Shown here piece after piece: positions 798-24,117 of a DNA stretch of 64,000 nt (the stretch's first letter is position 1; each line of letters begins with the position of its first letter). The notes beneath the pieces are model-generated. The model was given only the letters and a program-made list of their open reading frames with translations. It made no database searches and was not told the origin of the DNA. This DNA comes from Chloroflexota bacterium (GTDB lineage: Bacteria > Chloroflexota > Anaerolineae > Anaerolineales > E44-bin32): assembly GCA_022561385.1 (NCBI GenBank), contig JADFRG010000001.1, forward strand, positions 1-64,000, in the 5' to 3' direction. A program made the position numbers and the translations under genes.

Positions 798-808
798 TTT
801 GGGACGGA

Positions 809-1012: not shown

Positions 1013-1116
1013 TTTTCACTCTCCGTTGTATCGGTCCGGTCTTGAGGCCCGGAACATGGTCTGTAACCCGATTAACGTAAAACCCCGGAGGAAAGTCGCG
1101 CGCTCAAGATCGGTGC

Positions 1117-1686: not shown

Positions 1687-1746
1687 GTTCGCTCCTCTAT
1701 GCTCTCTTCGAAAAGCCCGGCGGCCTGCTCAGTGGCTTCGGATCGA

Positions 1747-4101: not shown

Positions 4102-4188
4102 GCGGCCGCGAGTGTAACATCTCAGAAAACCGGGAGAACCTATGCGATGGGGGCGATCCTATTTGGCGTGCCGTCTGGTCGCTCGTTA

Positions 4189-4215
4189 ATAAAAACGGCG
4201 GGTCGGCTGACCCGT
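4189..4215 (-). terminator. Intrinsic terminator after the deacetylase gene
   Basis: Minus-strand stem CGGGT/ACCCG with loop CAGCCG, extended by a weak pair, followed by TTTTT at 4195-4191. It lies 32 nt after the polysaccharide deacetylase stop codon. Confidence 0.6.
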
Positions 4216-4246
4216 CAAACGCATTCAACATGGGGCGGCGTGCAAA

Positions 4247-4891: not shown

Positions 4892-4954
4892 CGCGAGCAG
4901 AAAAAGGGCCAGCGCGGCAGCAGAACGTCGCTTGCTGATTTCTCGCAGCCTTCG

Positions 4955-7441
4955 CTAGGCACGGTCTTCAACCAACATTCGCCGCAGCACCTTCCCTACG
5001 AACGATTTTGGCAAGTCCTGCCTGAACTCGATTTCCCAGGGCACCGCATAAGGTTCCAGACGGCGACGACACGTCTCCAGCAGTTCGTCCGCTGAGAGGT
5101 CCGATCCCGGCCGGGGCACAACAAACGCCTTCACGTGCTGATCTCCATCTTCCGCCTTGAACCCTGCGACCGCAACCTCCATTACCTTCCCGTTTTCGTA
5201 GAGTACTTCTTCCACATCTCGGGGGTAGACGCTGTATTCACCGGCCATGATCGTATCCCGCACACGGCTGATGATGGTGAAAAAACCATCCGCATCCATT
5301 GCGGCCACGTCGCCGGTGTGGAGCCAGCCGTCCCGCAAGGCCGATTCTCCATCGTTATCGCCGCCAAGATAACCCTGCATGACCTGTGGGCCCCTCACGA
5401 CCAATTCGCCGATGCTGCCGATCGGTAATTCGGAGCCCGAGATCAGGTCCACAACTTTGGCCTCCGTATTCGGAAGCGGGACACCAATGGAGCCCTCTTT
5501 CCCTGTGGATCCGAAAGGTTTCGCGTGTGTGACCGGGGAGGCTTCCGTCAGTCCGTATCCCTCCACCAGCCGACCCCTGGTTAATTTCTCGAACTTCTCC
5601 TGCACCTCGATCGGGAGCGGCGCGGCGCCGCTGATACAGAAGCGGATGGCCCCCAGGCCGTACGATCGGACCTTCGGGGCATTGTTCAGTGCCATATGGA
5701 TGGTGGGCACACCCGGAAACAGCGTGGGTTTATGCTCTTTGATGTGGTCCAGCACCTGCTGCAGTTCGAAGACCGGCAGCAGAACCATGGTGGCCCCAAT
5801 TGCAATCGGAAGATTCATGGCGGCCGTCATCGCGTAGCTGTGCGAGAAGGGGAGCACACAAAGGAACGTCTCACGGCCGGTTGCCATCTCGGGCACCCAG
5901 TGCCGCAGCTGAAGGGCATTCGCGACCAGATTCGCATGGCTGAGCCGCACCCCCTTGGGCTCGTCCGTGGTGCCGCTCGTAAATAAGATGACAGCAAGAT
6001 CGTCCCCGGCAACTTCCACCTCGGGCGCCTGTCGGGAGGCGTCCATCATCAGCTGTTCCATGTTCAGCGCGGCGGAGACAGTAACCTTATTCTTGCCGAG
6101 CCCGGCCGTTTGCCAACGTTCCATGAGTTGTTGATAGACCCGCCTTGATACCGCTTCCCGAATATCCGTCAGCACAACTGTGAGCCGGTCTCCCGCCGCC
6201 TTCGCCAGTTCCGCGAATTCGGTTAAGGTCACCAGAACTCTGGCCTCTGCCCGCAGCAGCTGGGCCGCGATCTGCTGCGCGTTGGCCTCCGGATTGGCCA
6301 GAACCACAACCGCTCCGATCTTCAGCGCGGCATAATAAGCGATGATCATTTGTGGCATATTCGGCAGCACGATCATCACCCGGTCGCCGGGACCGACACC
6401 GAGTCCATGCAGCGCGTGCGAAAATTGATTAACGTGCCGGTCGAGCTGCTTGTAAGTGAGGCGAGAGCCGTAAAATAAGGTGGCGGTCCGGTTTGGCATC
6501 CAGTCCGCGGTCGTCTCCAGGAATTTGTGGAGCGGTTGTCGCGGGACCGGTATCGTGTGCGGAACATGTTCGTCGTAGCTCGCCAGCCAGGGTCGCTCGA
6601 CTTCTGGACCGGTTTTCACGCCTCGATCTCTCCACGTGAATCGCCGATCTTCTCCCCCTATGAAACGCTCGATGGCCCGGTCTACTGCGGCATGCCGCTC
6701 CAGCTGCACCTTGTGTTTTGAGGCCCCCACGTCGACGATTTCCGCGCCAAGAATCGCTTTCCCGACGTCTTCAAAGACGCGGCGCGGGAAGTACCGATCT
6801 CGCTCACCGGTGATCACCATCGTCGGAGTGGAGAGCTCAGCAAGCATCTTCCACCCGTTCCACTGACGCATGTTGTTGATCAACATACGCTTCATCACGT
6901 GCACTTCGGCGTTCCAGCGCGGCCTGTAACGCCAGAGGAGAATCAAGGCCGCGGTTGGAATGCGCGCGATCAGCGCAGTGAGTCGTGGCAACGGGTATTC
7001 GCCGGCGGTGGCCACCAATATGAGTTTCTCCAACCGCTCCGGATGGGCTCTGGCGAACTCCACACAAATAGACCCGCCAAATGAGTGACCCGCCAGGATA
7101 AACCGTTCCGGGAGCTTGAGCGTGTCAGCTATGTTGAGGATGTCGTCGACGAGCTCCGGCATGGTGTAGCGAGTGTAGGGCGCGTCGCTTTGCCCGTGCC
7201 CGCGCAGGTCGGCTGCGACCACTCGATAGTCACGCGAGAAGTAATTGAGCTGATGCTCCCAGGTCTCCGCTACTCCCGCGTACCCGTGTACGAACACTAT
7301 GGTGCGTTCGACACCCTCGGGCCACAGGTCGATAACGCTCAAGTTTGAATCGGACACGTCCCGAATGGGGACGTTCACTCGATAGAGGTTGAAATCGACT
7401 TGGATCGCGCTGCGGCTGAAGCCGCGGAGCTTGCGCTTCAT
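4955..7441 (-). CDS. Fusion: alpha/beta hydrolase plus AMP-forming acyl-CoA ligase
   Basis: 828 residues with two complete domains. Residues about 20-265 form an alpha/beta hydrolase: oxyanion region FVHGYAG, nucleophile elbow GHSFGG with Ser120, an acidic residue in GERDRYFP, and a His near 243-250. Residues about 300-828 form an ANL-superfamily ligase: P-loop LFTSGTTDEPKG (487-498), GYGLTEASP, LHTGDVAAMD, and the C-terminal catalytic Lys in KSFVGKVLRR. A plausible reading is that the hydrolase releases a carboxylic acid from an ester and the ligase activates it to acyl-CoA, but the substrate cannot be read. The frame is uninterrupted across the joint, so this is one polypeptide. It ends at a TAG in frame with the deacetylase that follows. 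Confidence 0.9.
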   Translation of the reverse strand: MKRKLRGFSRSAIQVDFNLYRVNVPIRDVSDSNLSVIDLWPEGVERTIVFVHGYAGVAETWEHQLNYFSRDYRVVAADLRGHGQSDAPYTRYTMPELVDDILNIADTLKLPERFILAGHSFGGSICVEFARAHPERLEKLILVATAGEYPLPRLTALIARIPTAALILLWRYRPRWNAEVHVMKRMLINNMRQWNGWKMLAELSTPTMVITGERDRYFPRRVFEDVGKAILGAEIVDVGASKHKVQLERHAAVDRAIERFIGGEDRRFTWRDRGVKTGPEVERPWLASYDEHVPHTIPVPRQPLHKFLETTADWMPNRTATLFYGSRLTYKQLDRHVNQFSHALHGLGVGPGDRVMIVLPNMPQMIIAYYAALKIGAVVVLANPEANAQQIAAQLLRAEARVLVTLTEFAELAKAAGDRLTVVLTDIREAVSRRVYQQLMERWQTAGLGKNKVTVSAALNMEQLMMDASRQAPEVEVAGDDLAVILFTSGTTDEPKGVRLSHANLVANALQLRHWVPEMATGRETFLCVLPFSHSYAMTAAMNLPIAIGATMVLLPVFELQQVLDHIKEHKPTLFPGVPTIHMALNNAPKVRSYGLGAIRFCISGAAPLPIEVQEKFEKLTRGRLVEGYGLTEASPVTHAKPFGSTGKEGSIGVPLPNTEAKVVDLISGSELPIGSIGELVVRGPQVMQGYLGGDNDGESALRDGWLHTGDVAAMDADGFFTIISRVRDTIMAGEYSVYPRDVEEVLYENGKVMEVAVAGFKAEDGDQHVKAFVVPRPGSDLSADELLETCRRRLEPYAVPWEIEFRQDLPKSFVGKVLRRMLVEDRA

Positions 7442-7480
7442 TGGGCTATTTTACATTGTGGGACGGTAACGAAGGGATAG

Positions 7481-7509
7481 CGCCTTAACGATCTTGAAGG
7501 ATTAAGGCG
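7481..7509. repeat. 8-bp inverted repeat between propeller lipoprotein and hydrolase-ligase genes
   Basis: CGCCTTAA (7481-7488) and TTAAGGCG (7502-7509) are perfect inverted arms around a 13-nt loop. There is no T-run on either side, so it is a weak terminator or processing hairpin at best. Confidence 0.5.
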
Positions 7510-7533
7510 TGCGATTGGGTCGCTTGCCTTGTG

Positions 7534-8814
7534 TCAGGGACTGATCGAGGGCTTGAGCAGATTCCAGGTCCTGCCGCCGTTGGTGGTAGACACCAGTGCC
7601 AGCGCCTCGCCCTGGCGCGCCACCGCCCAGCCCACCTGGTCCGACACGAAACTAAACTGACCATCCCACTGAACGGTCTTGACAAAGTCCCAGGACCGGC
7701 CTCCGTCCACGGTCTGGTGAATTTGTCGACCAAAGGCGTAGGTAATCCTGGGATTTAGCAGAGCCAGCTCGCCCCCCGGGTAGAGGTAGCTTTCCCAGCT
7801 CGCGCCGCCGTCCTCCGTGGTGTAAATGTAGTTTAGTTTCAAGCCCGTTCGACAACTCACTGCAACCACTCCAATGAGCTCGGAAACGAGCTGAGGCGAA
7901 TGGCCCTCGCAGAGTTCAGTTTCGAAAAGCGCGGGCCGATTCTCCGGAGCAGGAAGCATGATAGGTTCCCAGCTCCGTCCGCCGTCGCGGGTGACCGCCA
8001 CTTCGGGCGCCACAATTGGGCAATCCGCCACGGTCGCCCACCCCACCATCAAACTGCCGAAATCTACACCGGTCTTGCGGCAGCTTTGCAGGCCGCCCTC
8101 CGCAGGTGTGATGGCCACCTCCCAGCGCTTTCCGCCATCCGCAGTGCGGAGCAGGTATATAGGGTATTTGAACATTCCTGCCGGTCCATAACGGGCAATC
8201 AACCAGCCGTTATTCGCGTCCTCAAATCCGAGCAACGGCGGAAAGTCTGGGGTCCCCAGGAACTCGAGCTCGATGGCTCTGCTTGGGCTCCAGGTCTCCC
8301 CTCCATCCGTTGTTCCCCATACTCGAAATCGAACGGGGCTCGGATCGATCGATTCTTCATAATACGCAACCCACCCGGTCATCGGGTTGATGAAATAGCC
8401 CACGGCAGATTTGGAGGGATCGGTCTCTTCAGGCGCCGGCTCCGCCGGCGTCACATCCATCCAGCTCTGGCCTCCATCGTTTGTTCTGAACACGTGGTCG
8501 GAATTACCACCCAGGCCACCGATGCCCCATCCTCGCTCGGCAGTGATCATCTGAATGTAGGTGATTAAGATCAGCGTGTCCGGTTCGAGACGCGTGATGG
8601 GCGTGCCACGCGCCTCATCGATATCTGCTTCCGCTGCTTCGGTCGGCAAGGAAATGACATCGGAATCCGGCTTGTTGTCTTGCTCGGAAGGCGCCGCCGT
8701 TGATAGCACCTGAGCTTCGGGTTCGGTTGGCTCTCCGGCGAATGGCAGGTTGCAGGCCGCCGCCAGCAACGACCCCAGGATCAAAACGGTTCCGATCGCG
8801 ATGCGCTTGTTCAT
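7534..8814 (-). CDS. Lipoprotein with seven Asp-box (BNR) repeats, Ycf48-like propeller
   Basis: 426 residues. A signal peptide ends in the lipobox LAAAC (Cys21), followed by an acidic/Thr-Glu-rich linker to about residue 70. The rest is a beta-propeller with seven regularly spaced Asp-box motifs: TNDGGQSW, TTDGGETW, TADGGKRW, TRDGGRSW, TEDGGASW, TVDGGRSW and TTNGGRTW. This matches the sialidase-like or Ycf48/HCF136-like propeller architecture. No sialidase active-site arginine pattern is evident, so I do not call it an enzyme. It is expected on the outer face of the cytoplasmic membrane. The ATG at 8814 follows a CTCAGGAGAA ribosome binding site. Confidence 0.88.
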   Translation of the reverse strand: MNKRIAIGTVLILGSLLAAACNLPFAGEPTEPEAQVLSTAAPSEQDNKPDSDVISLPTEAAEADIDEARGTPITRLEPDTLILITYIQMITAERGWGIGGLGGNSDHVFRTNDGGQSWMDVTPAEPAPEETDPSKSAVGYFINPMTGWVAYYEESIDPSPVRFRVWGTTDGGETWSPSRAIELEFLGTPDFPPLLGFEDANNGWLIARYGPAGMFKYPIYLLRTADGGKRWEVAITPAEGGLQSCRKTGVDFGSLMVGWATVADCPIVAPEVAVTRDGGRSWEPIMLPAPENRPALFETELCEGHSPQLVSELIGVVAVSCRTGLKLNYIYTTEDGGASWESYLYPGGELALLNPRITYAFGRQIHQTVDGGRSWDFVKTVQWDGQFSFVSDQVGWAVARQGEALALVSTTNGGRTWNLLKPSISP

Positions 8815-9036
8815 GGTGTTCTCCTGAGGGTCCAGTTTAGGAGCGATCCACGAACGACGGAACCAACCCGTGAGTACTTAGTTTTGTTTGCAGCGTAGGG
8901 GATTCAGCTGCCCATCGCCCGGCGGGCACGTCGAGTCCTGAAAGGGGCGTGGCCCAGCGATTCGCTGATTTTCTGAAGAAGCACCGGCTCCTTTATTGCC
9001 AGTCGCCTCGCGCTACCTTCGTTCTGTAATAAAGGC

Positions 9037-10890
9037 TCAATCGGCAGCCGGTGCGGCCTCGGCCGGAGCCGTGGTAACCGATTCATACCGCGGACTGGTC
9101 CAGCTCAGCAGGGCCCAACCGATCCCGCCGGCAAGAATTGAGCCCGCCAGGATACCGATCTTGGCGTTTGCGAGCAGCCCAGGATCCTGGAAGGCCGCTT
9201 GCGCGATGAAAATGGAGATCGTGAATCCGATGCCCGCCAGAACACTGGCGCTGAAAAACTGACGCCACCGAATGTCCGGCGGCTTCTCAGCCACTCCGAA
9301 CCTGGCGGCCAGGTAGGCAAAGATCCCCACGCCGATCGGTTTTCCTAATAGCAGGGCAAAGATTATTCCCAGGCTGACCGGATTAATGAGTCCGTCCCCT
9401 CCTCCCAGCGGCACTCCCGCGTTGGCCAGCGCAAAAATCGGCAGAATCAAATAGGTGACCCATGGCTGCAGCCTGTGTTCGAGCCGCTGGGCCGGCGGCT
9501 CCATGCGATCCAGGATCGTCTTCAGGGCTCGAACCAGCGCCTGCTCCCGCCTTTCTGAGTCGTCGTATTCGTAACGATTGAGCACCGTATCGGTCTGGGC
9601 CATGAGGCGCTTGACATTGGGCGGGCTGCGGGTCGGGATAATGGCCGCCAGCAGTACGCCGGCGATGGTGGGATGAACTCCAGAATTCAAGAAAGCCAGC
9701 CACAATCCGATCCCGAGCAGCGAATAGGGCAGTGGAGAGAATACGCGCCAACGGTTCAGAATCAGCAGGCCGGCAAAGAAGATGGCCGCCACCAACAAGG
9801 CGGTAACGTTGATCCCAGAGGTATAGAAGAGGGCGATGACCAGAATACCGCCCACGTCATCGGCGATGGCCATAGCGGTGAAAAATATCTTCAGGGAGAG
9901 CGGAACGCGCCCTCCGAGCAGGGCCAAGACGCCCAGCGTGAACGCGATATCGGTGGCCACCGGGATCGCCCAGCCTTGTATCGCGATCGGATTTGAGAAG
10001 TTAAATGCCACATAGATCAGTGCCGGCACAATCATTCCGCCTGCGGCTGCGGCAATTGGAAGGGCCGCCTTCCGCGGGCTCGCCAATTCACCGGCGGTGA
10101 CCTCGCGCTTGATCTCCAATCCCAAGACAAAGAAGAAGATCACCATCAGGCCTTCGTTGACCCACTCCAGAAGGGATCTCTCGAGATGGAGATTGCCCAT
10201 GGAGATCCCCAATTCGGTCTGCCAGAAACTAGTGTACGAGTCTGCAAATGGGGAATTGGCCCAGAAGAGTGCGAGTGCGCTGAAAATCAGGAGCATCAGC
10301 CCGCCGGAGGCCGCGAGGCGAGTGAACTCTTGCGTCAGCGCACTGATGCGTACCCCCATCGGTTTGCGGACGGCTTCCATCAGGGACTCCGGATCCCATG
10401 CACCGTCGTAGCGCTTGCCGTTGATGTACCAGGTCGGGGTGCCGTGCACCCCGCTCTCTCTGCCGCTTTGGAAATCCTCGCGGATCTTCTCTGAGTGCGT
10501 GTGCGCATCGAGCTCGGTGCGAAACCTTTCTTCGTCGATACCGATCTCGCGTGCGTATTCGATCAAGTCGCTTTCTTCTAGATGATCCTGATGCTGAAAC
10601 AACAGGTCGTGCATTTCCCAGAACTTGCCCTGCGCGCCTGCCGCCTCCGCCGCCTCTGCTGCGAGTTTGGCATGTGGATGGACCGTTCGATTGGGGAAGT
10701 GGCGGAAGATCATGCGCACCGCATTTCCGGTGCGCTCCTGGATCTCGTGCACCGAGTTCTCCGCCTGCCCGCAGTAGGGGCATTCGTAATCGCCGTACTC
10801 GACGAGCGTTACGGGAGAGTCGTCGGGCCCCTTCGTGTGGTCCCGATCAGAAATGGGCGGGGTCAACCTCGCCGGAAGTTCAGCGGACAT
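9037..10890 (-). CDS. nhaA: DsbA-like thioredoxin domain fused to Na+/H+ antiporter NhaA
   Basis: 617 residues. Residues 20-175 are a DsbA-family thioredoxin domain with the redox motif CPYC (37-40) and the cis-Pro loop HGTPTWYING (150-158). Residues about 180-610 are a complete NhaA: the FVLGLEIKRE segment, PVATDIAF (Asp314, matching E. coli Asp133) and AMAIADDVGG with the paired Asp344/Asp345 that carry ions. The antiporter exchanges H+ for Na+ across the cytoplasmic membrane. No signal peptide or membrane helix precedes the thioredoxin part. If NhaA keeps its usual cytoplasmic N-terminus, the CPYC domain faces the cytoplasm. The joint is in a single uninterrupted frame. Confidence 0.93.
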   Translation of the reverse strand: MSAELPARLTPPISDRDHTKGPDDSPVTLVEYGDYECPYCGQAENSVHEIQERTGNAVRMIFRHFPNRTVHPHAKLAAEAAEAAGAQGKFWEMHDLLFQHQDHLEESDLIEYAREIGIDEERFRTELDAHTHSEKIREDFQSGRESGVHGTPTWYINGKRYDGAWDPESLMEAVRKPMGVRISALTQEFTRLAASGGLMLLIFSALALFWANSPFADSYTSFWQTELGISMGNLHLERSLLEWVNEGLMVIFFFVLGLEIKREVTAGELASPRKAALPIAAAAGGMIVPALIYVAFNFSNPIAIQGWAIPVATDIAFTLGVLALLGGRVPLSLKIFFTAMAIADDVGGILVIALFYTSGINVTALLVAAIFFAGLLILNRWRVFSPLPYSLLGIGLWLAFLNSGVHPTIAGVLLAAIIPTRSPPNVKRLMAQTDTVLNRYEYDDSERREQALVRALKTILDRMEPPAQRLEHRLQPWVTYLILPIFALANAGVPLGGGDGLINPVSLGIIFALLLGKPIGVGIFAYLAARFGVAEKPPDIRWRQFFSASVLAGIGFTISIFIAQAAFQDPGLLANAKIGILAGSILAGGIGWALLSWTSPRYESVTTAPAEAAPAAD

Positions 10891-10920
10891 TCTTATCCAT
10901 CGATCGAAATGGGCCTTAGC

Positions 10921-11385
10921 TTAGATATCGGAGATGAGAAGTTCCATGTATTCGCGCATGTTGGTCAGGCTGTCGAGTCGCCAGGTCGCCTCAATCACTT
11001 CATCCATCCGCTCGGAGCTAAGTACTCCGCGGACGTTGGCTCGGAATTTGGCAACAATATCCTCGTCGCTCATAGGATCCGCTGGATCGCCCTTGGCCGC
11101 GTCGGTCTGCGCGGTATAACTTTGGCCGTCGGTGGTCGTGATCGTCACTCGCGCGCGCTTGATCCTGGGGAAAAGCTCGTCAATCTCAGGATCGGAGACC
11201 ACCTTAATCTTCGGCAGCAGCTCCCGGATTCGTGGATCCTTCAGCTTCTCGTCGCTGAAACTTTCTGGCAGCACATTGCCGTCCACCAGCGCGGCCGCGA
11301 TCACATAGGGAAGGCTGTGGTCGGCGGTTTCCTTCGTCTTTGGCTTGAGCGCCTTGAGCAGCACCTTTCCTTGATATTCGTGCAA
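10921..11385 (-). pseudogene. Truncated MmgE/PrpD-family protein, C-terminal third only
   Basis: 154 codons. The reading begins shortly before KTKETADHSLPYVIAAALVDG, which is the start of the C-terminal domain of MmgE/PrpD proteins (2-methylcitrate dehydratase, cis-aconitate decarboxylase and relatives, normally about 450 residues). The remainder (the IKVVSDPEIDELFP and KGDPADPMSDEDI regions) follows the family to its end. The larger N-terminal domain is absent: 11386-11692 has no continuation in any frame that I could recognise. The catalytic residues of the family lie mostly in the missing domain, so I read it as a remnant rather than a working enzyme. Confidence 0.8.
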
Positions 11386-11692
11386 GCGCGCTAATTCAGT
11401 TCCCTAAATATGAGAATGCGAGTAAAAAGACTGCTCCCTGGTGCCGAACAAGGATGCTTTTTCGCGCCATGATTGTAGTCTAGATGAGCCATCGAGAAGA
11501 GCATTAAATGGATGAGCTCCCCGGCCACACTCAATTGGAAAGCGAGGGTGCACACGGTCCCCACCGGTCTCGGGCCTCGGCCAACCCGGTTAGAGACGAT
11601 GATAAACTCATCCTGTAGAACTGGGTACTAAAACGGTTGCCAGCCACTATGATGCTTGGGATCCAAGCATCATTTTCTACTCGCCAACACAC
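11386..11692. other. 307-bp intergenic region before the kinase/phosphatase operon
   Basis: No coding region recognised. It holds a small inverted repeat GATGA/TCATC near 11600 and the strong 11-bp palindrome described in the next entry. It separates the minus-strand PrpD remnant from the plus-strand signalling operon and must contain that operon's promoter, but no convincing -35/-10 pair is visible. Confidence 0.5.
11649..11673. promoter_or_regulatory. Perfect 11-bp inverted repeat just upstream of the signalling operon
   Basis: ATGATGCTTGG (11649-11659) and CCAAGCATCAT (11663-11673) are perfect inverted arms with a 3-nt centre GAT, followed by TTTT. The repeat ends 19 nt before the GTG start at 11693. 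It could be an operator for a dimeric regulator or a leader hairpin with a short T-run that limits transcription into the operon. Confidence 0.55.
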
Positions 11693-12955
11693 GTGACGGA
11701 AGACTCCTCCCAGCCCGATACCGGTCGTCTAGAGTTGGTGTACCAACTCTCCAAGACCTTTAATTCGTCCCTTGATCTAACGGATGTGCTGAACACCGTG
11801 ATGGACGAGGTGATTTTGGCCGTCCACGCCGAACGTGGCTTCGTGGTGCTGAAAGAGCCGGATGAACAATTGGTCTTCCGGGCCGCGCGCGGCGTGGAGA
11901 AAGAGACCATTGAAAATCCGGAATTCGAGATTTCTCGCGGTGTTGTCGAAGAAGTAATCCGTGACGGCCAGGGTGTTCTCACCAGCGACGCCCAACACGA
12001 TGAACGATTCATGGGCCGGCACAGCGTGATGAGCCTCGGTCTGCGGTCCATCCTTTGCTCCCCGCTGCAGGTCAAGGATTTAATCCTTGGCGCGATCTAT
12101 GTGGACAACCGCCTGCACGCGGGCATCTTTACTAACGACGATCTCGAGCTACTGAACGCCATCGCCTCGAGTGCGGCCACCGCCATTGAAAATGCGCGTT
12201 TGTATCAGGTGGCGGTCGAAAAGGGCCGTATGGAGCGTGAGCTCTCTATGGCGCGCACGGTCCAAAGTGGATTGATTCCGGAGGCAATCCCTGAGCTCAA
12301 GGGCTGGCAGTTTGCCGCAAGCTGGTTGCCGGCGCGGGAAGTGGCAGGAGACTTCTACGACTTCATCCCCACGGATGACGAGCGAATGGGCCTGGTGATC
12401 GCCGATGTCACCGACAAGGGTATGGGAGCTGCACTCTTCATGGCGCTGACGCGCAGCATGGTGCGGGCCAGCCTTGAAATGGCCGACTCACCGGCGGAAG
12501 CCATCACCAAAGCCAATCGCCTCGTGTGCGCGAACTCAAGCTCCGCGATGCCGGTGACGCTTTTCTACGGGTTAATAGGACCCGAAGATGGAGGAATTGT
12601 TTACGTCAATGCTGGTCACAACCCGCCGTTGATCTACCGGAGCGCCTCAAAATCGTTTGAGGAATTGAGCCGCACCGGCATCTTGCTGGGGGTGGATGAA
12701 TCGCTCGTACTCGAGCAGGGGACCGCTGAGCTCGAGCCCGACGATTTCCTCATCATGTACACCGACGGCGTCCCGGACGCATTGAATTCGGCTGAGGAAA
12801 GTTTTGGTGAGGATCGCATGCGGGAGTCGATCCTGGATGCCGTATCCGGCTCCGCTCAGGATATGTCCTTGAGTCTACTGCAGGCATTGCAGAAATTCAT
12901 TGGTGATGCCCTACCCTTCGACGACATCACCCTACTCGTAGCTAAGCGCGAATGA
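11693..12955 (+). CDS. GAF-domain PP2C-type (SpoIIE/RsbU) serine phosphatase
   Basis: 420 residues. A GAF sensor domain spans about 12-165 and ends in the usual SAATAIENARLYQ helix. A short coiled-coil linker follows, then a SpoIIE/PP2C phosphatase domain (about 185-418) with GDFYDFI, ADVTDKGMGAALFMA, NAGHNPPL and the terminal FDDITLLV, where the Asp residues bind the metal pair. Proteins of this layout dephosphorylate anti-sigma-antagonists or Ser/Thr kinase substrates in response to a bound small ligand. The stop overlaps the ATG of the first kinase by 4 nt, so it is translationally coupled to it and may be its direct opponent. GTG start; no clear ribosome binding site. Confidence 0.9.
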   Translation: MTEDSSQPDTGRLELVYQLSKTFNSSLDLTDVLNTVMDEVILAVHAERGFVVLKEPDEQLVFRAARGVEKETIENPEFEISRGVVEEVIRDGQGVLTSDAQHDERFMGRHSVMSLGLRSILCSPLQVKDLILGAIYVDNRLHAGIFTNDDLELLNAIASSAATAIENARLYQVAVEKGRMERELSMARTVQSGLIPEAIPELKGWQFAASWLPAREVAGDFYDFIPTDDERMGLVIADVTDKGMGAALFMALTRSMVRASLEMADSPAEAITKANRLVCANSSSAMPVTLFYGLIGPEDGGIVYVNAGHNPPLIYRSASKSFEELSRTGILLGVDESLVLEQGTAELEPDDFLIMYTDGVPDALNSAEESFGEDRMRESILDAVSGSAQDMSLSLLQALQKFIGDALPFDDITLLVAKRE

Positions 12956-15900
12956 CTCGATTCGCACCGGGCACCGTGCTCAACAATCGCTATCGGCTCG
13001 AAGCTGAGTTGGGTAGAGGCGGCACCGGGACGGTGTTCCGAGCCCACGATCCCGAGCTAGATCGGGAGGTGGCGGTCAAAATCCTGACCAATCTCGAGCT
13101 CGGGACGGACGGGCGGGAGCGTCTGCAACGAGAAGCGCAGGCCATCGCCAAGCTCAACCATCCCAATATTGTTGCTGTATACGACGTAGGCGAGCTGGAC
13201 AATGTGCCCTTCATCGTGATGGAGTATGTGGAGGGGTTGGATCTTCATCGCCGTCCTCCGAAGGACGCGGCCCAAATCGTAGATGTGGCCCGTCAGGTAT
13301 CTTTAGCGCTTCAGCATGCCCACGAATTCGGCGTCATTCATCGCGATCTCAAACCCGAAAATGTATTGGTCCAATCGGATGGCACAGCGAAGCTGGTAGA
13401 TTTCGGCATCGCCCGTTCGGTTGCTTCCCGCATGACCACCGAGGGCCAGATTTCCGGTACCGTCTTCTACCTTGCGCCCGAGTTGGCCCTCGGCCAGGAC
13501 TATGACGGTCGGGCCGATCTGTATGCCCTGGGAGTAATGTTGTATGAGTTTTCGGTCGGATCGCTCCCGTTCGATCAGGGAGATGCATTGGCGGTTGTCT
13601 CCCAGCACATCAACGCCACTCCCATCTCGCCCCGCGCGCGAAATCCGAATGTCGCGCCTCGCCTTGAAGCACTCATTCTCCAGCTTTTGAGCAAGGACCA
13701 GGGCCAGCGGCCGCCGTCAGCGGCGGCGGTGATAGAAGCGCTGGATGATCCAGATCTGTTGGATCCGGCCGCCGCGACCGACCCCGAAATGGCGGTCCTC
13801 GATCGGATTGCGCGCGGCCGCTTCGTGGGTCGCCAGAAGGAACTCAAACAAGCCCGCGCGATCTGGATGCAGACCATGGCCGGCGCGGGCCAGACCTTGT
13901 TGATCAGCGGCGAGCCGGGGATCGGTAAGTCGAGCCTGACGCGCGAGCTGGCCACCCAGGCCGAAATCAGCGGCGGCAGAGCGTTGATCGGCGAATGTTA
14001 CGCGGAGGGTGGCGCACCCTACTCGCCTTTCTCGCAAATTCTGCGGAGCGTACTGCCGAAGGGGAACCACAGCCGGTCCCGCCTGCCCTCCTTCGTCATC
14101 GCCGATCTGATGAGCCTGACCCCCGAGCTGCGCCCTTATTACTCTGATTTGCCCGAGGTCCCGCCGTTGGACCCCGAATCGGAGCAACGTCGTTTATTCG
14201 AAAGCATGGTGTCGTTCTGTACGAGCCTCAGCGAGCAATCTCCTCTCATGCTCGTAATCGAAGATGCACACTGGGCGGACAGCGGCTCTTTGTCCATGCT
14301 GCGTTATATCGCGCGGCGAACGAAGGGTCAGCCCATCATGTTGGTTGCAACCTACCGCGAAGTGGAACTGGACGAGTCTCGTCCGCTCCAGGAAATGCTT
14401 GTGGAACTAAACCGGGAGCGCTTAGCAAGCCGCATGAAGCTCAGCCGATTCGGAAAAGACGGTACCCGGGAGCTCCTGGCCGCCATCTTTCAAGATGAGA
14501 TTTCACCGGAATTCCTGGAAGGTATTTACGGCGAGACGGAAGGCAACCCGTTCTTCATTGAAGAGATATGTAAGTCTCTGGTCGAGGAGGGCAAGCTCTA
14601 TTATGAGGACGGCCATTGGCATCGTCCAGACATGGTCGACCTCGATCTCCCGCAGAGCGTTCGGGTGGCCATCCAGTCTCGCCTTGCCAAACTACCGGAT
14701 GAGGTCCTGGACGGGCTACGCATGGCCGCCGTCCTGGGCCACGAGTTCGATTTCGACACACTCGTTTCAGCTTCAGACCTCAACGAGGAGGCGCTGATTG
14801 ATGCCTTGGAGTCCGCCGAACGTGCTCAGCTGGTTAAGGAGATCAGCGGAGAACGAAGTGGGACTTTCCGATTTGCGCACGCGCTGATCGCAACCACGCT
14901 GCTAGCGGGCCTCAGCGGACTGCGACGCCGACGCATGCATCACCATGTCGCGGCGGCGATCGAAAAACTGCGCTCCGACGACTTTGAGGCCCTGGCCCAT
15001 CATTATTACGAGAGCGGAGACGTAGATGGCGGGCTGAAGTATTCGCTCCGTGCCGGAGACCGCGCGCTGGGCCTCTCAGCCCACAGTGAGGCCCGGCGTC
15101 ACTTCAACCGAGCGCTCGAGATAGCCTCAGTTGAGGGGCACACCGATGAGCTGGCTACCATCCACCTGGCCATGGGCGATATCGAGAGCACCGGGGATTT
15201 TAACCTCGCTCTTGAATCTTATGAGCAGGCATTGACTTTGACACAAGATTCCGTCCAGCAATCGATTATCAAGGTCAAGATCGGGAGGTTACATGCAGCC
15301 ACCGGCAACGTGCAGGGAGTGCCACTGTTGCAGGAGGCCGTGGAGACGCTTGATCCTGATACGCATGGGAATGAGCTTGCACTTGCAATCGCATCCCTTG
15401 GTCGCTTCCATCACAATCGCGGTCAAGATAGTTTAGCCTTGGAACAGCTGGAAAAGGCTCGAGTGATCGCGGAACCCCTGAAGGATATTGAGACTCTCAG
15501 CTACATCTATATCTTTCTGGCGGGTGCCTATCAGCACTTGGCCAACTTCGAACGCAGCAACGAATGGGGGCGACGTCAGATTGAGTTAGGAAGTGAAGCC
15601 AAGTATGCGTTCATGGAGGCTGTGGGCCACGAGTATTTAGCTGAAAATAACGCTTTCATGGGGCGGTGGGAGGAAGCGCTTGAGCACGCGGAGCGGGACG
15701 AAGAGATCGGTCAACAAAACGGATTGTCCGATCGGGTGCGCTGGGCCAAAATGGTCAAGCTGTGGGCGCTGCATGGCATGGGCCGGCCCGAGTTGGCCAT
15801 CGAAGAAGGCTCACTTTCGCTGGAGCAAGCGGAAACCTATGGAGATCGTAGGCTCGCAGTGCTTAGTGGAGCTCAGTTGGCCCGCGCTTATGCCGACTGC

Positions 15901-16514
15901 AATGACTTTGACACTGCGCGGCAGCATGCCGAACTTTCTACGGAGCGCGCGGTTGAGCTTGATCAGGCTTATATGATCGGCACCGCGCAGGATAGCCTGG
16001 CATACGTACAGGGGCTCCAGGGGGAGTGGCAGCAGGCCCTTACCAGTCGCGAGCTAACCACGAAGGCCCTTGAGGGATCCGACAATCAATTGATACCCAT
16101 GGCGAATGGCCCCGGCCTGGCAGAGGCGCTGCTGGAAACGGGGCGAGTTGATGAGGCGGGAGAGCTTGTCCAGGATGTCATACAGATTGACCGAGAATCC
16201 GAGTCGCCGATTCCTGAGGCCAGAGCCTTAAGAATCCTGGGGCGTATCCACGCGCATCGAGGAGATACTGAGCTTGCAACCAAAGCCTTCGCTAATGCGG
16301 TGAAACTCTGCGAAGAATGGGATAGCCAATTGCTGGCGGGAAGAATCCTGATCGATTGGGCTTCGCTTCAGGCCACACACGAATCCAAGCAGACGGCGGC
16401 GGCCACACTTCAGCGATCGCTCGAGATCTTCGAGGCTGCGGGCGCAAAGTACTGGATCGATCGAGCCCGTGCAGCGCTTGACCAGCTCACGCTCCAAGGG
16501 GTACCTCGCGACGG

Positions 16515-16518
<4 letters not shown>
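12952..16518 (+). CDS. PknK-like Ser/Thr kinase - AAA ATPase - TPR protein, copy 1
   Basis: 1188 residues, no membrane segment. An N-terminal Hanks kinase (10-265) is complete: glycine loop GRGGTGTV, Lys43 in VAVK, HRDLKPEN with Asp132, DFG at 150-152, APE. An FVGRQKEL boundary at 291-298 starts a STAND/AAA_16-type ATPase with Walker A GEPGIGKSS (320-328) and Walker B LMLVIEDAHWAD (432-443). From about 690 to the end are tetratricopeptide-type helical repeats. The layout matches mycobacterial PknK and MalT-like regulators, in which the repeats sense a ligand and the NTPase gates the output; here no C-terminal DNA-binding domain is seen, so the kinase is the likely output. It overlaps its neighbours by 4 nt on both sides. 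Confidence 0.92.
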
Positions 16519-20078
<3,560 letters not shown>

Positions 20079-20115
20079 ACCCGGCCGTTCGGGATGATTC
20101 CAGCTAAACATACAC

Positions 20116-20361
20116 ATGTCTAGTATCTCCGAGCAAACCGTACTCAATGACCGCTGCCCACTAGACGAGAAGCTCGGCCGCGGCGGAATGGGCGTGGTCA
20201 ACCGTGCCCACGATTTGATGCTGGCCTGGGATGTGGCCGTTCAAGGCAGCCTGCATCATTACGCTTTCGGGCCTCGAGGCCGTATCTCAGGCCTGTGGTT
20301 CTTCTCTGGAATCTCTGCCCTCAATTGTGAATTTCTCAGTTTCGGCCAGGAGCGTCTCTAA
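20116..20361 (+). pseudogene. Stump of a third kinase copy (first ~45 residues)
   Basis: 81 codons. Residues 7-42 repeat the start of copy 2: VLNDR, LDEKLGRGGMGVV, RAHD, WDVAV. The similarity stops at the invariant ATP-binding Lys, which is Gln here (VAVQ), and the last 35 residues match nothing in the paralogues. The glycine loop alone cannot make a kinase. I read this as the residue of a third tandem gene after deletion. It sits 37 nt after copy 2 and is followed by a strong hairpin at 20374-20409. Confidence 0.85.
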
Positions 20362-20373
20362 ATCGCCTGGGAA

Positions 20374-20409
20374 GCAGGGCGGGCGGCCCGTCTGAGCCGC
20401 CCGCCCTGC
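20374..20409. terminator. 14-bp GC-rich hairpin closing the kinase operon
   Basis: GCAGGGCGGGCGGC (20374-20387) and GCCGCCCGCCCTGC (20396-20409) form a perfect 14-bp stem with an 8-nt loop. No T-run follows on the plus strand, so it is either a factor-dependent stop or a stabilising 3' end for the kinase transcript. Confidence 0.6.
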
Positions 20410-20627
20410 TATCTTGCTGCCTACGTCATGCGCGCTCCCTTCAGTTCGGTCGCTCCTCAAACATAAGCCCATTTCAAGCGAAGTCATGTCTGGCGGATCG
20501 CGATCGCATACATGATGCCCGGTTTCCTAAGTCATAGAGCGAGCTGCTCCACGGCTTCTCATTCCACCTGCGAGAAAACCGGCGATTCCGGTTAGGCCAT
20601 AACCTGCGAGCCGGCGGCCTCCGCTTC

Positions 20628-20765
20628 CTAATTGCCGCCAGCCAGTAACCTCAGGATCATGGTTACCACGCCTAGCAGCACACCAATTTCCATGAGGATG
20701 GAACCCAGGTGCGAGCCCGTTGCAATCTTCAGCCCAAAAAACATCAGCAGGCCCAGATTCACCAC
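20628..20765 (-). CDS. Possible small membrane protein
   Basis: A 45-codon reading from GTG 20765 to TAG 20628 that is almost entirely two hydrophobic helices: NLGLLMFFGLKIATG, a short SHLG turn, then a second helix through MEIGVLLGVVTMIL to LLAGGN. The open frame continues upstream to about 20844 without a good start codon, and the upstream residues (DAWHVLSWGEPTGRW) look protein-like, so the true N-terminus may be longer. I do not recognise a family. No ribosome binding site is obvious. The amphipathic, well-segmented composition argues for a real gene, but the call is tentative. Confidence 0.4.
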   Translation of the reverse strand: MVNLGLLMFFGLKIATGSHLGSILMEIGVLLGVVTMILRLLAGGN

Positions 20766-20896
20766 CCATCTGCCGGTAGGCTCGCCCCAGGACAGGACGT
20801 GCCAGGCATCGAGTGTGCGCGTCGAGTAGACCCCTAACAGCCGAATCGATCATCGGTCGCCCTGTTACATTAGGTGCATCCTGGAGGTGGCGAGCA

Positions 20897-21580
20897 GTGA
20901 CAACGAGTGTCGAGGCGGTGTTGGAGCAGCTCAAATTAAGGGGCGACCCCGAGAACATCAAGGGTATGAGCAGGTTTGGCATGGCCACCGATCAGAGATT
21001 GAGTGTACCGGTGCCCGAAATGAGAAAGATTGCCAAGCGCGTCGGCAAGGACCACGCCCTGGCCGTGGCGCTGTGGAAGACCGGAGTGCAGGAGGCCCGC
21101 ATCGTGGCCGCTCTGATCGACGTGCCGGAGGAAGTGACCGAATATCAGATGGAAACTTGGGTCGTAGATTTAAACTCCTGGGACATCTGCGACCAGGTCT
21201 GCCTCAACCTGTTTGGCAAAACTCCGTACGCGCAACAGAAGATTTCCGAGTGGTCGAGGCGAGAGGGGGAATTCGTCAAACGCGCGGCTTATGCCATCAT
21301 CGCCGGCCTGGCCTGGCATGACAAGAAGGCGGCAGACGACCAGTTCATTGGGTACTTTCCAGTGATCAAGAGCGGGGCTACCGATGAGCGAAATTTCGTC
21401 AAGAAGGCCGTAAGCTGGGCCTTGAGGACCATCGGGAAGCGGAATCTCGAGCTCAATAAGGCCGCCATTCAGGTTGCCAGGGAGATTCAGGAATTCGATT
21501 CGAGGGCCGCCCGTTGGATCGCCTCCGACACCCTACGGGAACTCGAAGGCGAGAAGGTTCAGGCCAGGCTGGCAGGGTAA
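20897..21580 (+). CDS. DNA alkylation repair protein, AlkD/AlkC-like HEAT repeat glycosylase
   Basis: 227 residues from GTG 20897, which has GGAGG at 20884-20888 with 8-nt spacing; the frame is open further upstream but without similarity. The protein is all-helical HEAT-like: GMSRFGMATDQRLSVPVPEMRKIAK, then ALIDVPEEVT, then WVVDLNSWDICDQVC, which carries the Trp, Asp and Trp of the AlkD active cleft, then RAAYAIIAGLAWHDKKA. AlkD enzymes remove bulky or cationic N3/N7-alkyl bases without base flipping. It stands alone, and together with tag at the left end gives the window two alkylation-repair glycosylases. Confidence 0.88.
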   Translation: MTTSVEAVLEQLKLRGDPENIKGMSRFGMATDQRLSVPVPEMRKIAKRVGKDHALAVALWKTGVQEARIVAALIDVPEEVTEYQMETWVVDLNSWDICDQVCLNLFGKTPYAQQKISEWSRREGEFVKRAAYAIIAGLAWHDKKAADDQFIGYFPVIKSGATDERNFVKKAVSWALRTIGKRNLELNKAAIQVAREIQEFDSRAARWIASDTLRELEGEKVQARLAG

Positions 21581-21757
21581 CAAATTAACCTGCAACGTTG
21601 GAATCTCACCCGGCGGCTCCAATTGTGAAATATCCCCTTACGGCCTGGATATGCGGAGGTCAAAATAGCGAGGAAAAGCGCCCCCAGCTTGACCCGTGGG
21701 AGAAAGCTCAACCGAAGGGGGACTCGTCCGTAGCCGGGCCGGTAGCAGTTAAAGAAG

Positions 21758-21955
21758 CTATCGGGTCGCGTCGCTAGAGTTCTCAATCGAAGGCTCCGCC
21801 TTCGCACTGAGCTCGTCGAGCAGCTCCTTATCCCGCTCTAAATTTCGGAAACGGCTTATCAAGCTCAGCACATACAAACCCATAATGCTCAGGATCACGC
21901 TGTACCCGAAGGCCATGTAGTTGAACGTTTCTGCCGGGGCATCTTGTAGCAACAT
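21758..21955 (-). CDS. ccmD: CcmD-like small membrane protein of cytochrome c maturation
   Basis: 65 residues with one membrane helix (about 12-33, ending in LYVLSLISRF) followed by a charged cytoplasmic tail with ERDKELLDELSAK. Size, topology and the position directly after ccmC fit CcmD, which in System I links CcmABC to haem-loaded CcmE. Sequence similarity in this family is always low, so the position is the main support. It is the last gene of the ccm cluster on the minus strand. Confidence 0.75.
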   Translation of the reverse strand: MLLQDAPAETFNYMAFGYSVILSIMGLYVLSLISRFRNLERDKELLDELSAKAEPSIENSSDATR

Positions 21956-21989
21956 TTATTACCTCTCCTGACGGCCACACTTGGGAGGC

Positions 21990-22703
21990 CTAGAGCGATA
22001 TCAGCTCCATCTTACGCTTCTCTACCTCCTCCGTCCCGCGTCCCAGTCGAATGCGATACCGGAGCAGGGTGGCGTAGACGAACGTGAAGGTCAGCACGCT
22101 GAACATCAAAGCTTGCACCATGCGAGCCGTCATATCGAAGGCGCCCTCTGCAGCGGGATCGCTGCTGCCTATTACCACCGGATGGATGGTCCGGAACACG
22201 CGAATGGACAGGAAGGTTATCGGCACGCTGATGAAGGCCGCGATGCCATACACGGAACCAAAACGCGCCCGACGGTCTGGATCCTCGATACCTTGCCGCA
22301 GCATCAAATATGCGAAATACAACAGCAGCATGATGGTGGCGGTCACCAGGCGCGGATCCCAGGTCCACCACGTGTTCCAGATCGGCCGAGCCCAGATCGA
22401 GCCACTGCTGATGTTGATGATAGTGAACACGACGCCGATCTCAACCGATGACTCGGCCAGGCGATCCCACTTTGGCTCGCGCTTGGCCAGATACACTCCA
22501 CCGGCGATCGCCGTGACTAGAAAAGCCAAGGCTCCCACCCAGCCCGCCGCCACGTGGAAATAGAACACGCGCTGAACGTCGCCCATTATCGCTTCGCGGG
22601 GCGCGTAGATGAACACCATATAAAGGGCGGTCAAGAATAGTACGATCGTGATACCGGTCAGGATCTTCAGGTTGCGAGGTACGGGTTCCATTTTCTCCTC
22701 CAC
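21990..22703 (-). CDS. ccmC: Haem-handling protein CcmC
   Basis: 237 residues with six membrane segments and the WWD domain: SGSIWARPIWNTWWTWDPRL at about residues 95-115. His residues in FYFHVAAGW and in the later IHPVV loop flank it and are the expected axial haem ligands. CcmC moves haem to the periplasmic face and loads it onto CcmE. The ATG at 22703 abuts the stop of ccmB, so translation is probably coupled. Confidence 0.92.
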   Translation of the reverse strand: MEEKMEPVPRNLKILTGITIVLFLTALYMVFIYAPREAIMGDVQRVFYFHVAAGWVGALAFLVTAIAGGVYLAKREPKWDRLAESSVEIGVVFTIINISSGSIWARPIWNTWWTWDPRLVTATIMLLLYFAYLMLRQGIEDPDRRARFGSVYGIAAFISVPITFLSIRVFRTIHPVVIGSSDPAAEGAFDMTARMVQALMFSVLTFTFVYATLLRYRIRLGRGTEEVEKRKMELISL

Positions 22704-23426
22704 TCACTCTTCCACGACATAGTCGAACAAAACAATCGCGACTCCTAAGAATATCCCATCGTATGCAATTAACAGGCTCAACCAGGCCTGGTATTCCTCA
22801 AATGGAAGCCCTTCAAGGATGCCGGTCGTAGCCTTGACCGCCGCCACCAGCACCGGCAATACAACCGGAAACAGCAGGATCGGCAGCAGGATATCTCGTG
22901 TCCGCGCTTGGATTGCCATGGCCGACAGCAACGTCCCGATCACTACGTATCCTATCGAACCCAGCAAGACGACCCCGATTAGGCCGGGATGGAGCAGGTT
23001 CACATTGTAGAGCAGGCTGTAGAGCGGCAAGATGATGGCTTCCACGATCAGCATGAAGAGCAGATTGCTGAACACCTTACCGAAATACAGCGCTGAGCGG
23101 TCGACCGGAGCCAGCAGAAGCCCGTCCAGGCAGCCGCGATCTTTCTCGATGGCCATCGAGCGATTGAGACCGAGCGTCCCGGCGAACGCGAAGGTCACCC
23201 ACAACACCCCAGCCGTGACCGTCTGGCGAGTGCGCAGATCGAGTTCCAGCGCGAAATTGAAGATGAGGATCACCAGCAGCGAGAATATCAACATGCTGCC
23301 GAGCAGCTCCCTGCTGCGCAGCTCGGCCGCGATGTCCTTCGATACGATGGCCCCTACCACGCGTAAATAACCTACCAGCGCCGATCTGCGTCCGACGCCG
23401 CTCACCGCGCCAACCCCCTCAGCCAC
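22704..23426 (-). CDS. ccmB: Haem exporter membrane subunit CcmB
   Basis: 240 residues with six predicted membrane helices. The sequence carries family blocks: KDIAAELRSRELL at the N-terminus, ILWVTFAFAG-type helix text GVLWVTFAFAGTLGLNRSM, and the EKDRGCLDGLLLAPVDRS loop typical of CcmB. It is the permease partner of CcmA in the ABC complex that drives release of holo-CcmE. The start overlaps the end of ccmA by 8 nt. Confidence 0.92.
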   Translation of the reverse strand: MAEGVGAVSGVGRRSALVGYLRVVGAIVSKDIAAELRSRELLGSMLIFSLLVILIFNFALELDLRTRQTVTAGVLWVTFAFAGTLGLNRSMAIEKDRGCLDGLLLAPVDRSALYFGKVFSNLLFMLIVEAIILPLYSLLYNVNLLHPGLIGVVLLGSIGYVVIGTLLSAMAIQARTRDILLPILLFPVVLPVLVAAVKATTGILEGLPFEEYQAWLSLLIAYDGIFLGVAIVLFDYVVEE

Positions 23427-24117
23427 GCGTGACCTCGTAATAAAGTTTGCTCAATTCGCCGGGTTTCAGTTCGCCCCGCTTCAAGCTACGGGCAATTTTC
23501 CCGCCGCTCAGGATGTCCACTCGGGAGGCAAGTTTGGCAGTCCGCGTTAGATCGTGGGAGGTCATTACCACCGTGCGGCCCTCACGCGTCACTTTCTCCA
23601 GCAAATTATCCAGCATGTCGGCCGCGTCCGGATCCAGGCCCGTGTGCGGCTCGTCAAAGAGAAGCAACTCCGGCCGATGGAGGATGCCGCGACCGATGGC
23701 CAGGCGCTGCTGCATGCCCCGCGAGTATTTTCGCACCAGATCATTCCGCCGAGCCCTCAACCCGACGATGCTCAGGACCTCCGCAATCCGATCGCCTAAA
23801 TCCACTACACCATATATACGGCCGAAGAAGCGAAGGTTCTGATCTGCGGTGAGGTCACCGTACAGCATCGGCTGATGGGATACCACACCCACGATCTTGC
23901 GCGCCGCTTCGGCCTGCGCGGGAAGCCGGTACCCCGCCAGCGTCACTTCTCCCATGGTCGGTCTGGTCAGAGAGGCCAGAATGCGCAGCAACGTCGTTTT
24001 GCCGGCCCCATTCGGACCGACCACCGCCACGAACTCTCCCTCCGCAACACGAAAATTCAGGCCGCGCAACACAGGCATTACACCAAAAGCCTTGACGAGA
24101 TTCCGGACCTCAATCAA
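23419..24117 (-). CDS. ccmA: Haem exporter ATP-binding protein CcmA
   Basis: 232 residues, a compact ABC ATPase. Walker A GPNGAGKTT lies near residues 34-42, the Q-loop follows, the signature is YSRGMQQRLAIGR, Walker B is LLLFDEPHTGLD, and the H-loop is in TSHDLT. CcmA with CcmB uses ATP to release haem-bound CcmE from the CcmC complex. Position next to ccmB, and the absence of any substrate-binding gene, support this over a generic transporter. Confidence 0.9.
   Translation of the reverse strand: MIEVRNLVKAFGVMPVLRGLNFRVAEGEFVAVVGPNGAGKTTLLRILASLTRPTMGEVTLAGYRLPAQAEAARKIVGVVSHQPMLYGDLTADQNLRFFGRIYGVVDLGDRIAEVLSIVGLRARRNDLVRKYSRGMQQRLAIGRGILHRPELLLFDEPHTGLDPDAADMLDNLLEKVTREGRTVVMTSHDLTRTAKLASRVDILSGGKIARSLKRGELKPGELSKLYYEVTRG

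What the first reader, a model, noticed from the sequence alone, without database searches (positions are those of the whole stretch)
11693..20361. Self-contained phosphatase plus twin kinase-NTPase-TPR signalling cassette
A GAF-SpoIIE phosphatase and two 1190-residue PknK-like proteins are joined by 4-nt overlaps. The kinase and NTPase halves are conserved between the two copies, while the sensor repeats diverged, as expected if each copy recognises a different ligand and both act on one output controlled by the phosphatase. Large kinases with STAND-type NTPases can act as threat sensors, so defence or stress roles are both open.
Basis: partly seen in the sequence, partly recalled or inferred. 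Interest (0 to 1): 0.65.

Follow-up and report, generated by a model that had tools for sequence, protein, structure and literature searches.

The report
Sensor-swapping tandem kinases with phosphatase
A probable Chloroflexota bacterium carries an operon of one protein phosphatase and two large internal sensor-kinases (plus the remnant of a third) whose engines are alike but whose sensing ends differ, and relatives show that the sensing ends are exchanged independently of the engines, which points to a plug-in sensing circuit of unknown output.

Summary
In detail: GAF-SpoIIE phosphatase (11693-12955), K1 (12952-16518) and K2 (16515-20078), joined by ATGA overlaps.
The reason is more than drift. 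Across 400 genomes of the order the same core carries five sensor classes: three TPR-bearing classes (T1-T3), a short class, and a cytosolic SBP_bac_5 domain. K1 and K2 belong to different classes, and sensor class is uncoupled from core phylogeny. In an independent phosphatase-kinase-kinase operon of another family (G298), the kinase domains are about 95% identical in DNA, the NTPases diverge sharply and the sensors are TPR versus SBP. This looks like kinase-domain gene conversion beside divergent sensors.
Phosphatase linkage is real (13 genomes, 5 families; genome co-occurrence Fisher p about 3e-14) but optional: 18 of 33 assessable kinases lack it nearby.
Best reading: several soluble STAND kinases with different sensors converge on one phosphatase-opposed phospho-output. 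Ligands and substrate are unknown. No support for defence was found.
Verdict: new variant of a known kind (PknK-like STAND kinases).

The parts
11649..11673 (+). Perfect 11-bp dyad ATGATGCTTGG-GAT-CCAAGCATCAT followed by TTTTC, ending 19 nt before the phosphatase start; candidate operator or leader hairpin
   Evidence: stem kept in both other genus members (12 bp in G001, 10 bp in G002) while flanks diverge; RNA fold -19.9 kcal/mol, z -3.05; unique in the genome at <=3 mismatches
11693..12955 (+). GAF-SpoIIE protein phosphatase (PP2C-like), 420 aa, GTG start
   Evidence: start position conserved in G001 (87% identity over the whole length)
11771..12190 (+). GAF domain of the phosphatase
   Evidence: Pfam GAF_2 E 4.7e-17; a similar GAF precedes a class III cyclase elsewhere in the genome (C71)
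12374..12949 (+). SpoIIE catalytic domain
   Evidence: Pfam E 1.8e-47; GDFYD, DVTDKG, NAGHNP, YTDG, DDIT motifs
12952..16518 (+). K1: PknK-like soluble kinase-STAND-TPR protein, 1188 aa, sensor class T1
12991..13719 (+). K1 Ser/Thr kinase domain
   Evidence: Pfam Pkinase E 3e-51
13819..14346 (+). K1 AAA_16 STAND NTPase
   Evidence: Walker A GEPGIGKS, Walker B MLVIEDAHWAD
15022..16515 (+). K1 TPR sensor, class T1 (shared with G097 and G201)
16515..20078 (+). K2: PknK-like soluble kinase-STAND-TPR protein, 1187 aa, sensor class T2
16542..17294 (+). K2 Ser/Thr kinase domain
   Evidence: Pfam Pkinase E 3.3e-51
17382..17918 (+). K2 AAA_16 STAND NTPase
18585..20075 (+). K2 TPR sensor, class T2 (shared with nine other kinases in the set)
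20116..20361 (+). Remnant of a third kinase (K3): 81-aa ORF, only the first ~43 aa kinase-like, catalytic lysine lost
   Evidence: in G002 a contig joins the end of a T2 kinase to the start of a further, open kinase frame at this place

Best explanation
A multi-input, one-output phospho-signalling operon. K1 and K2 are soluble STAND kinases: binding of a protein or small molecule to the C-terminal sensor opens the NTPase switch (ADP to ATP, oligomerisation), which brings N-terminal Hanks kinase domains together for trans-autophosphorylation and substrate phosphorylation. The translationally coupled GAF-SpoIIE phosphatase removes the phosphate and lets a second, small-molecule signal through its GAF domain set the threshold. 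Sensors are exchangeable, whereas kinase domains of tandem copies stay alike (in one relative by apparent gene conversion), which is expected if all copies must act on the same partner set. Shown: gene order, domain anatomy, intact motifs, sensor classes uncoupled from core, kinase homogenisation in G298, phosphatase co-occurrence. Inferred: switch mechanism (from MalT/STAND), shared substrate, phosphatase antagonism, ligands.
For: ATGA-coupled operon and intact catalytic motifs. Five sensor classes on one core. The core tree joins K1, K2 and G002_dn (100/99) against sensor class; AU tests reject every tested sensor class as a core clade, p 0.004 to 3e-59; K1+G097 rejected, p 0.01; sensor class on the core tree needs 17 changes against 18.4 in shuffles, p 0.24. 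In G298 the tandem kinases are 94% identical in the kinase domain, with 100% DNA identity over aa 41-120, and collapse from ~aa 330. Phosphatase-kinase adjacency in 13 genomes of 5 families; genome co-occurrence 15 where 24 and 27 of 400 carry each, Fisher 2.8e-14. No transmembrane segment in any of the kinases scanned. The STAND arm/sensor switch is established for MalT (PMC4381067).
Against: 18 of 33 assessable kinases lack an adjacent phosphatase, and some phosphatases stand beside other genes (amylase-like, a second SpoIIE protein, a NB-ARC-type kinase). No substrate gene is conserved next to the operon. In K1/K2 themselves no recent conversion tract is visible (uniform ~63% core identity), and the NTPase tree alone does not settle whether K1 and K2 are sisters (AU 0.49). 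The AU test does not reject G298 A+B as sisters in the NTPase part (p 0.23). T1 and T2 are distant homologues of equal length (hhalign 98.7%), so for K1/K2 fast divergence plus core conversion cannot be told from a sensor swap.
Confidence: 0.55

Rival explanations
1. Partner-switching input: the phosphatase is an RsbU-like activator that dephosphorylates the genome's single RsbV-like STAS protein (contig C18), releasing a sigma factor from the adjacent RsbW-like kinase; the STAND kinases modulate the phosphatase or the STAS protein.
For: SpoIIE-type phosphatases are the classic RsbU class (established knowledge). The genome has exactly one STAS protein, next to a HATPase_c_2 protein, with no SpoIIE gene within the ~10 kb read there, and only two strong SpoIIE phosphatases, one being this one. 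A distant relative (G030:C232) fuses a STAS domain in front of the kinase-STAND protein. M. tuberculosis Ser/Thr kinases can phosphorylate anti-anti-sigma factors (PknD on Rv0516c; PknK among those assayed; PMC4601284).
Against: STAS/RsbW are on another contig. No STAS or RsbW gene was found beside the operon in the relatives examined, though not every neighbour was scanned. The other SpoIIE protein (C9) is an equal candidate.
Confidence: 0.2
2. Independent sensor kinases: linkage reflects a duplication hot spot; K1, K2 and the phosphatase act in separate pathways, and the phosphatase is a general housekeeping PP2C.
For: Kinases frequently occur without the phosphatase and vice versa.
Against: Translational coupling at both junctions, recurrence of phosphatase-kinase order in 12 genera, strong genome co-occurrence, kinase-domain homogenisation in G298.
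Confidence: 0.15
3. Anti-phage or conflict sensor: the TPR parts recognise invader proteins, as in Avs-type STANDs, and the kinase triggers shutdown, with the phosphatase as safety catch.
For: Tripartite effector-STAND-variable sensor architecture and birth-and-death of tandem copies resemble NLR/Avs systems (PMC10907252).
Against: PADLOC hits cover only the kinase domain, through generic kinase models. No defence genes were identified next to the operon (not surveyed exhaustively). One sensor class is an SBP_bac_5 domain, typical of peptide or small-solute binding. The operon is kept across genera rather than sporadic within them.
Confidence: 0.08

Closest known systems
PknK of Mycobacterium tuberculosis (soluble kinase with C-terminal STAND module)
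   Same: Soluble N-terminal Hanks kinase followed by a STAND module, proposed as a hub for several inputs (PMC4601284).
   Different: Described there as a soluble kinase acting on VirS; here tandem copies coupled to a GAF-SpoIIE phosphatase and exchangeable sensors including a cytosolic SBP_bac_5 domain.
TOMM system kinase/cyclase fusion proteins (TIGR03903)
   Same: Best curated match of the NTPase part: aa 281-723 of K1 match positions 473-919, within an overall 286 bits.
   Different: Whole-protein cut-off 705.75 not reached; no cyclase domain in K1 or K2.
MalT / AfsR-type STAND regulators
   Same: NTPase switch with a C-terminal TPR sensor (MalT mechanism, PMC4381067).
   Different: Output is an N-terminal protein kinase instead of a DNA-binding domain.
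RsbU/RsbP-type SpoIIE phosphatases of partner-switching systems
   Same: N-terminal sensor (GAF) plus SpoIIE catalytic domain with intact motifs.
   Different: Operon partners are STAND kinases, not STAS and RsbW proteins.

Membership tests
PknK-like STAND kinases | N-terminal Hanks kinase with catalytic motifs | tested here: met
PknK-like STAND kinases | Central STAND (AAA_16) NTPase with Walker A and B | tested here: met
PknK-like STAND kinases | Soluble, no transmembrane segment | tested here: met
   19-residue hydropathy maximum 1.35 (K1) and 1.58 (K2)
PknK-like STAND kinases | Orthology to mycobacterial PknK | not tested
   PknK of M. tuberculosis was not compared directly; no PknK model appeared among the NCBIfam matches
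PknK-like STAND kinases | Nucleotide-driven oligomerisation that controls the kinase | not testable with these tools
   needs biochemistry
TOMM kinase/cyclase (TIGR03903) | Curated score cut-off 705.75 bits and a cyclase domain | tested here: not met
   286.5 and 277 bits; no cyclase domain in Pfam scan
PASTA kinases (PknB/Stk1) | PASTA repeats, transmembrane helix, cut-off 450 bits | tested here: not met
   307 and 333 bits over the kinase domain only; no PASTA, no TM
RsbU-type partner-switching phosphatase | Sensor plus SpoIIE domain with catalytic motifs | tested here: met
RsbU-type partner-switching phosphatase | STAS / RsbW genes in the same operon | tested here: not met
   operon holds only kinases; the single STAS+HATPase_c_2 pair is on contig C18
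RsbU-type partner-switching phosphatase | Dephosphorylates a STAS protein | not testable with these tools
   needs assay
Anti-phage STAND (Avs) or kinase defence systems | Match to defence models beyond the generic kinase domain | tested here: not met
   PADLOC matches shown cover the kinase domain only; none for the phosphatase

The most novel reading that the evidence does not exclude
A bacterial plug-in sensing bus: arrays of soluble STAND kinases whose catalytic kinase domains are kept alike by gene conversion so that all copies address the same substrate and phosphatase, while complete sensor modules (several TPR classes or a cytosolic SBP_bac_5 solute-binding domain) are swapped in and out. 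It would be an NLR-like sensor network used for ordinary physiological inputs.
Probability: 0.35. Interest if true: 0.7.

Novelty: new variant of a known kind. Interest (0 to 1): 0.5.

Why it matters
Inputs of PknK-like STAND kinases are unknown. A natural set in which one kinase-NTPase core carries at least five sensor classes, one of them an SBP_bac_5 domain whose relatives bind peptides or small solutes, gives direct handles for finding ligands and for testing how a STAND switch drives a Hanks kinase. The G298 tandem offers a natural experiment on how tandem paralogues keep one output while diversifying inputs. If the phosphatase opposes these kinases, a SpoIIE-type phosphatase would be tied to eukaryote-like kinases in a system other than the classic RsbU/RsbV/RsbW circuit.

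Tried and rejected
Rfam search of 8000-24000 gave nothing, nor did a tandem-repeat search of the region. Promoter- and terminator-like counts did not exceed shuffles, although one listed site is the conserved dyad. Defence reading: PADLOC gave only generic kinase matches. TOMM kinase/cyclase and PASTA-kinase membership fail their cut-offs. Alpha-glucan metabolism as the output (amylase-like and GH57 neighbours in seven genomes of one family) was rejected for the window: no homologue of that amylase was found in its genome (an empty search with no positive control). The claim that low TPR identity alone shows different ligands was rejected, because same-class pairs also drop to 30-35%. Recent conversion in K1/K2 was looked for and not seen. 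Structures of the two TPR parts were predicted without alignment (mean pLDDT 64); they show TPR superhelices (best PDB matches LGN) but do not discriminate ligands. Paper searches found nothing on kinase-STAND-SBP fusions or on SpoIIE-STAND-kinase pairs; only the open-licence library was searched.
Full report
OBSERVATION. The window (contig C13 of a 2.9-Mb, 94-contig genome) holds a three-gene operon on the + strand: GAF-SpoIIE phosphatase 11693-12955 (420 aa), K1 12952-16518 (1188 aa) and K2 16515-20078 (1187 aa). Both junctions are ATGA overlaps. All kinase, Walker and SpoIIE motifs searched for are present. Its first ~43 residues are the remains of a third kinase (75% identity over 100 nt to the start of K2, E 3.6e-14); it has lost the VAxK lysine and the rest of the gene. 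In a second species of the genus (G002) a 3.2-kb contig joins the end of a kinase with a K2-type sensor to the start of a further kinase whose frame is open to the contig end, so the ancestral array may have had at least three kinases.

ORGANISM. A relative of the same family (G007) carries a contig of the same length, with the match at the same place, as a record named Candidatus Aquidulcis, Chloroflexota, class Limnocylindria. The window is therefore probably from an uncultured Chloroflexota bacterium; this is an inference.

K1 versus K2 identity: kinase 64%, AAA_16 64%, rest of NTPase 61%, TPR 27%, with the drop at about residue 700. The prediction is met, but a control is needed: same-class kinases of other genera also lose identity in the TPR part (K2 vs G004: 70, 69, 35%; K2 vs G181: 57, 58, 32%). 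What sets K1/K2 apart is that their TPR parts fall in different classes. The K2 sensor aligns over its whole length with eight other kinases (103-263 bits). The K1 sensor aligns over its whole length only with G201 and G097 (185, 157 bits). K1 and K2 share a detectable match of only 67 residues (39 bits) although their cores are closer. Profile comparison shows T1 and T2 to be distant homologues of the same length (98.7%, 21% identity). Predicted structures of both are helical TPR-like superhelices (low confidence, no alignment).

SENSOR EXCHANGE. In a survey of 400 genomes of the order (regions read; gene tables), the ~690-residue kinase-NTPase core carries five sensor classes: T2 (10 members), SBP_bac_5 (9), T3 (8), T1 (3) and a short class (3). 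The SBP class is a Pfam SBP_bac_5 domain with E-values of about 1e-65 to 1e-79 in the five members scanned, two of them from the window's genus (C80 in its own genome, G002:C175); the other members were placed by sequence similarity. None of the kinases scanned has a transmembrane segment, so this domain, normally extracytoplasmic, is predicted to be cytosolic here. On the core tree K1, K2 and a G002 kinase form a clade (100/99) and so do the two G298 kinases (100/100), in each case across sensor classes. AU tests reject each of the classes T1, T2, T3 and SBP as a core clade (p 0.004, 3e-59, 5e-35, 5e-54). Mapping sensor class on the core tree takes 17 changes, against a mean of 18.4 for shuffled labels (p 0.24). 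Sensor and core therefore have separate histories. Several deep branches of the core tree are weak, and G201's first kinase is frameshifted and long-branched.

HOMOGENISATION. G298, of another family, has phosphatase-kinase-kinase with ATGA overlaps at both junctions. Its two kinases are 94% identical in the kinase domain (100% at DNA level over residues 41-120) and fall to about 50% DNA identity beyond residue ~360, where the NTPases and sensors (T3 TPR versus SBP) differ. In the NTPase tree each copy groups with a kinase of its own sensor class (97/85 and 96/86), although the AU test does not reject the two as sisters (p 0.23). The simplest reading is a recent gene conversion covering the kinase domain. 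K1/K2 show no such recent tract. G072 has a third array, in which the first kinase carries a different NTPase (read directly: Walker A GSGGCGKT), similar in sequence to that of the kinase next to the phosphatase in G369, which matches Pfam NB-ARC.

PHOSPHATASE LINKAGE. Fifteen kinases in 13 genomes (12 genera, 5 families) lie directly downstream of an orthologous phosphatase, singly or in an array. Eighteen assessable kinases do not (own C80; G002:C175; G007 two; G039 two; G042; G159:C369; G201:C64; G131 two; G181; G097; G149 two; G147; G089; G293). At genome level 24 of 400 have the core, 27 of 400 the phosphatase and 15 both (Fisher 2.8e-14, not corrected for phylogeny). Only two kinase candidates per genome were scored in the survey, so arrays are under-counted. 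The association is real and not obligatory. In the phylum at large, matches at the same threshold outside the order are rare and at 35-41% identity.

MECHANISM. From established knowledge of STAND proteins (MalT, PMC4381067) the sensor with its ligand opens the NTPase, which multimerises; that should cluster kinase domains and activate them. PknK of M. tuberculosis is likewise soluble, carries a C-terminal STAND module and has been proposed as a hub for many inputs (PMC4601284). The phosphatase would oppose the kinases and add a GAF-borne input; a similar GAF elsewhere in the genome precedes a class III cyclase (C71), which makes cyclic nucleotides one possible ligand (inference). The most serious rival is that the phosphatase serves the genome's only RsbV/RsbW pair, with a STAS-kinase-STAND fusion in G030 as a hint. 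These two readings could both be true if the STAS protein is the shared substrate.

REGULATORY ELEMENT. An 11-bp perfect dyad ends 19 nt before the phosphatase start. It is conserved in the two other genus members while flanking sequence diverges, no comparable dyad was seen in the other genera, and it occurs nowhere else in the genome at up to 3 mismatches. It could be an operator or a leader hairpin.

VERDICT. The finding is genuine and its interpretation half right. It is a new variant of PknK-like STAND kinases; the novel content is the exchange of whole sensor modules, including a cytosolic SBP domain, on an orthologous core, and kinase-domain homogenisation in a tandem array under one phosphatase. 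Substrate, ligand and physiological role are unknown.

Noticed in passing
window 11649-11673: Genus-conserved perfect dyad with short T run just upstream of the operon, unique in the genome; candidate operator or leader hairpin.
   Followed up: partly
G000:C80 (L093:3456-7286); L096, L097, L084, L095, L149:9017-12838, L153, L154, L168: Soluble kinase-STAND proteins ending in an SBP_bac_5 solute-binding domain, with no transmembrane segment; two are in the window's genus.
   Followed up: partly
L149 (G298) 5286-12838: Tandem kinases with about 95% DNA identity in the kinase domain only; apparent gene-conversion tract ending near residue 330.
   Followed up: yes
L089, L151, L152, L163, L164, L166, L177: In family f14 the phosphatase (with or without the kinase) sits beside a ~1200-aa amylase-like gene (60-66% identity), usually with a GH57/DUF3536 gene.
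   Followed up: partly
L100 (G030:C232) 611-4972: STAS domain fused in front of a kinase-STAND-TPR protein; possible hint at the substrate.
   Followed up: no
L161, L162 (G148, G182): Orthologous phosphatase followed by a ~700-aa protein with a second SpoIIE domain and a long N-terminal part without Pfam match.
   Followed up: no
L085:3173-3784: ECF sigma factor gene directly upstream of the phosphatase-kinase pair in G048.
   Followed up: no
L159:3934-7854: A 1307-aa kinase-cyclase-NTPase-TPR protein next to the phosphatase in G097, transcribed toward it.
   Followed up: no
window 10921-11385: 154-aa MmgE/PrpD C-terminal fragment divergent from the operon; G001 and G002 have a dehydrogenase E1 gene at this place instead.
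   Followed up: partly
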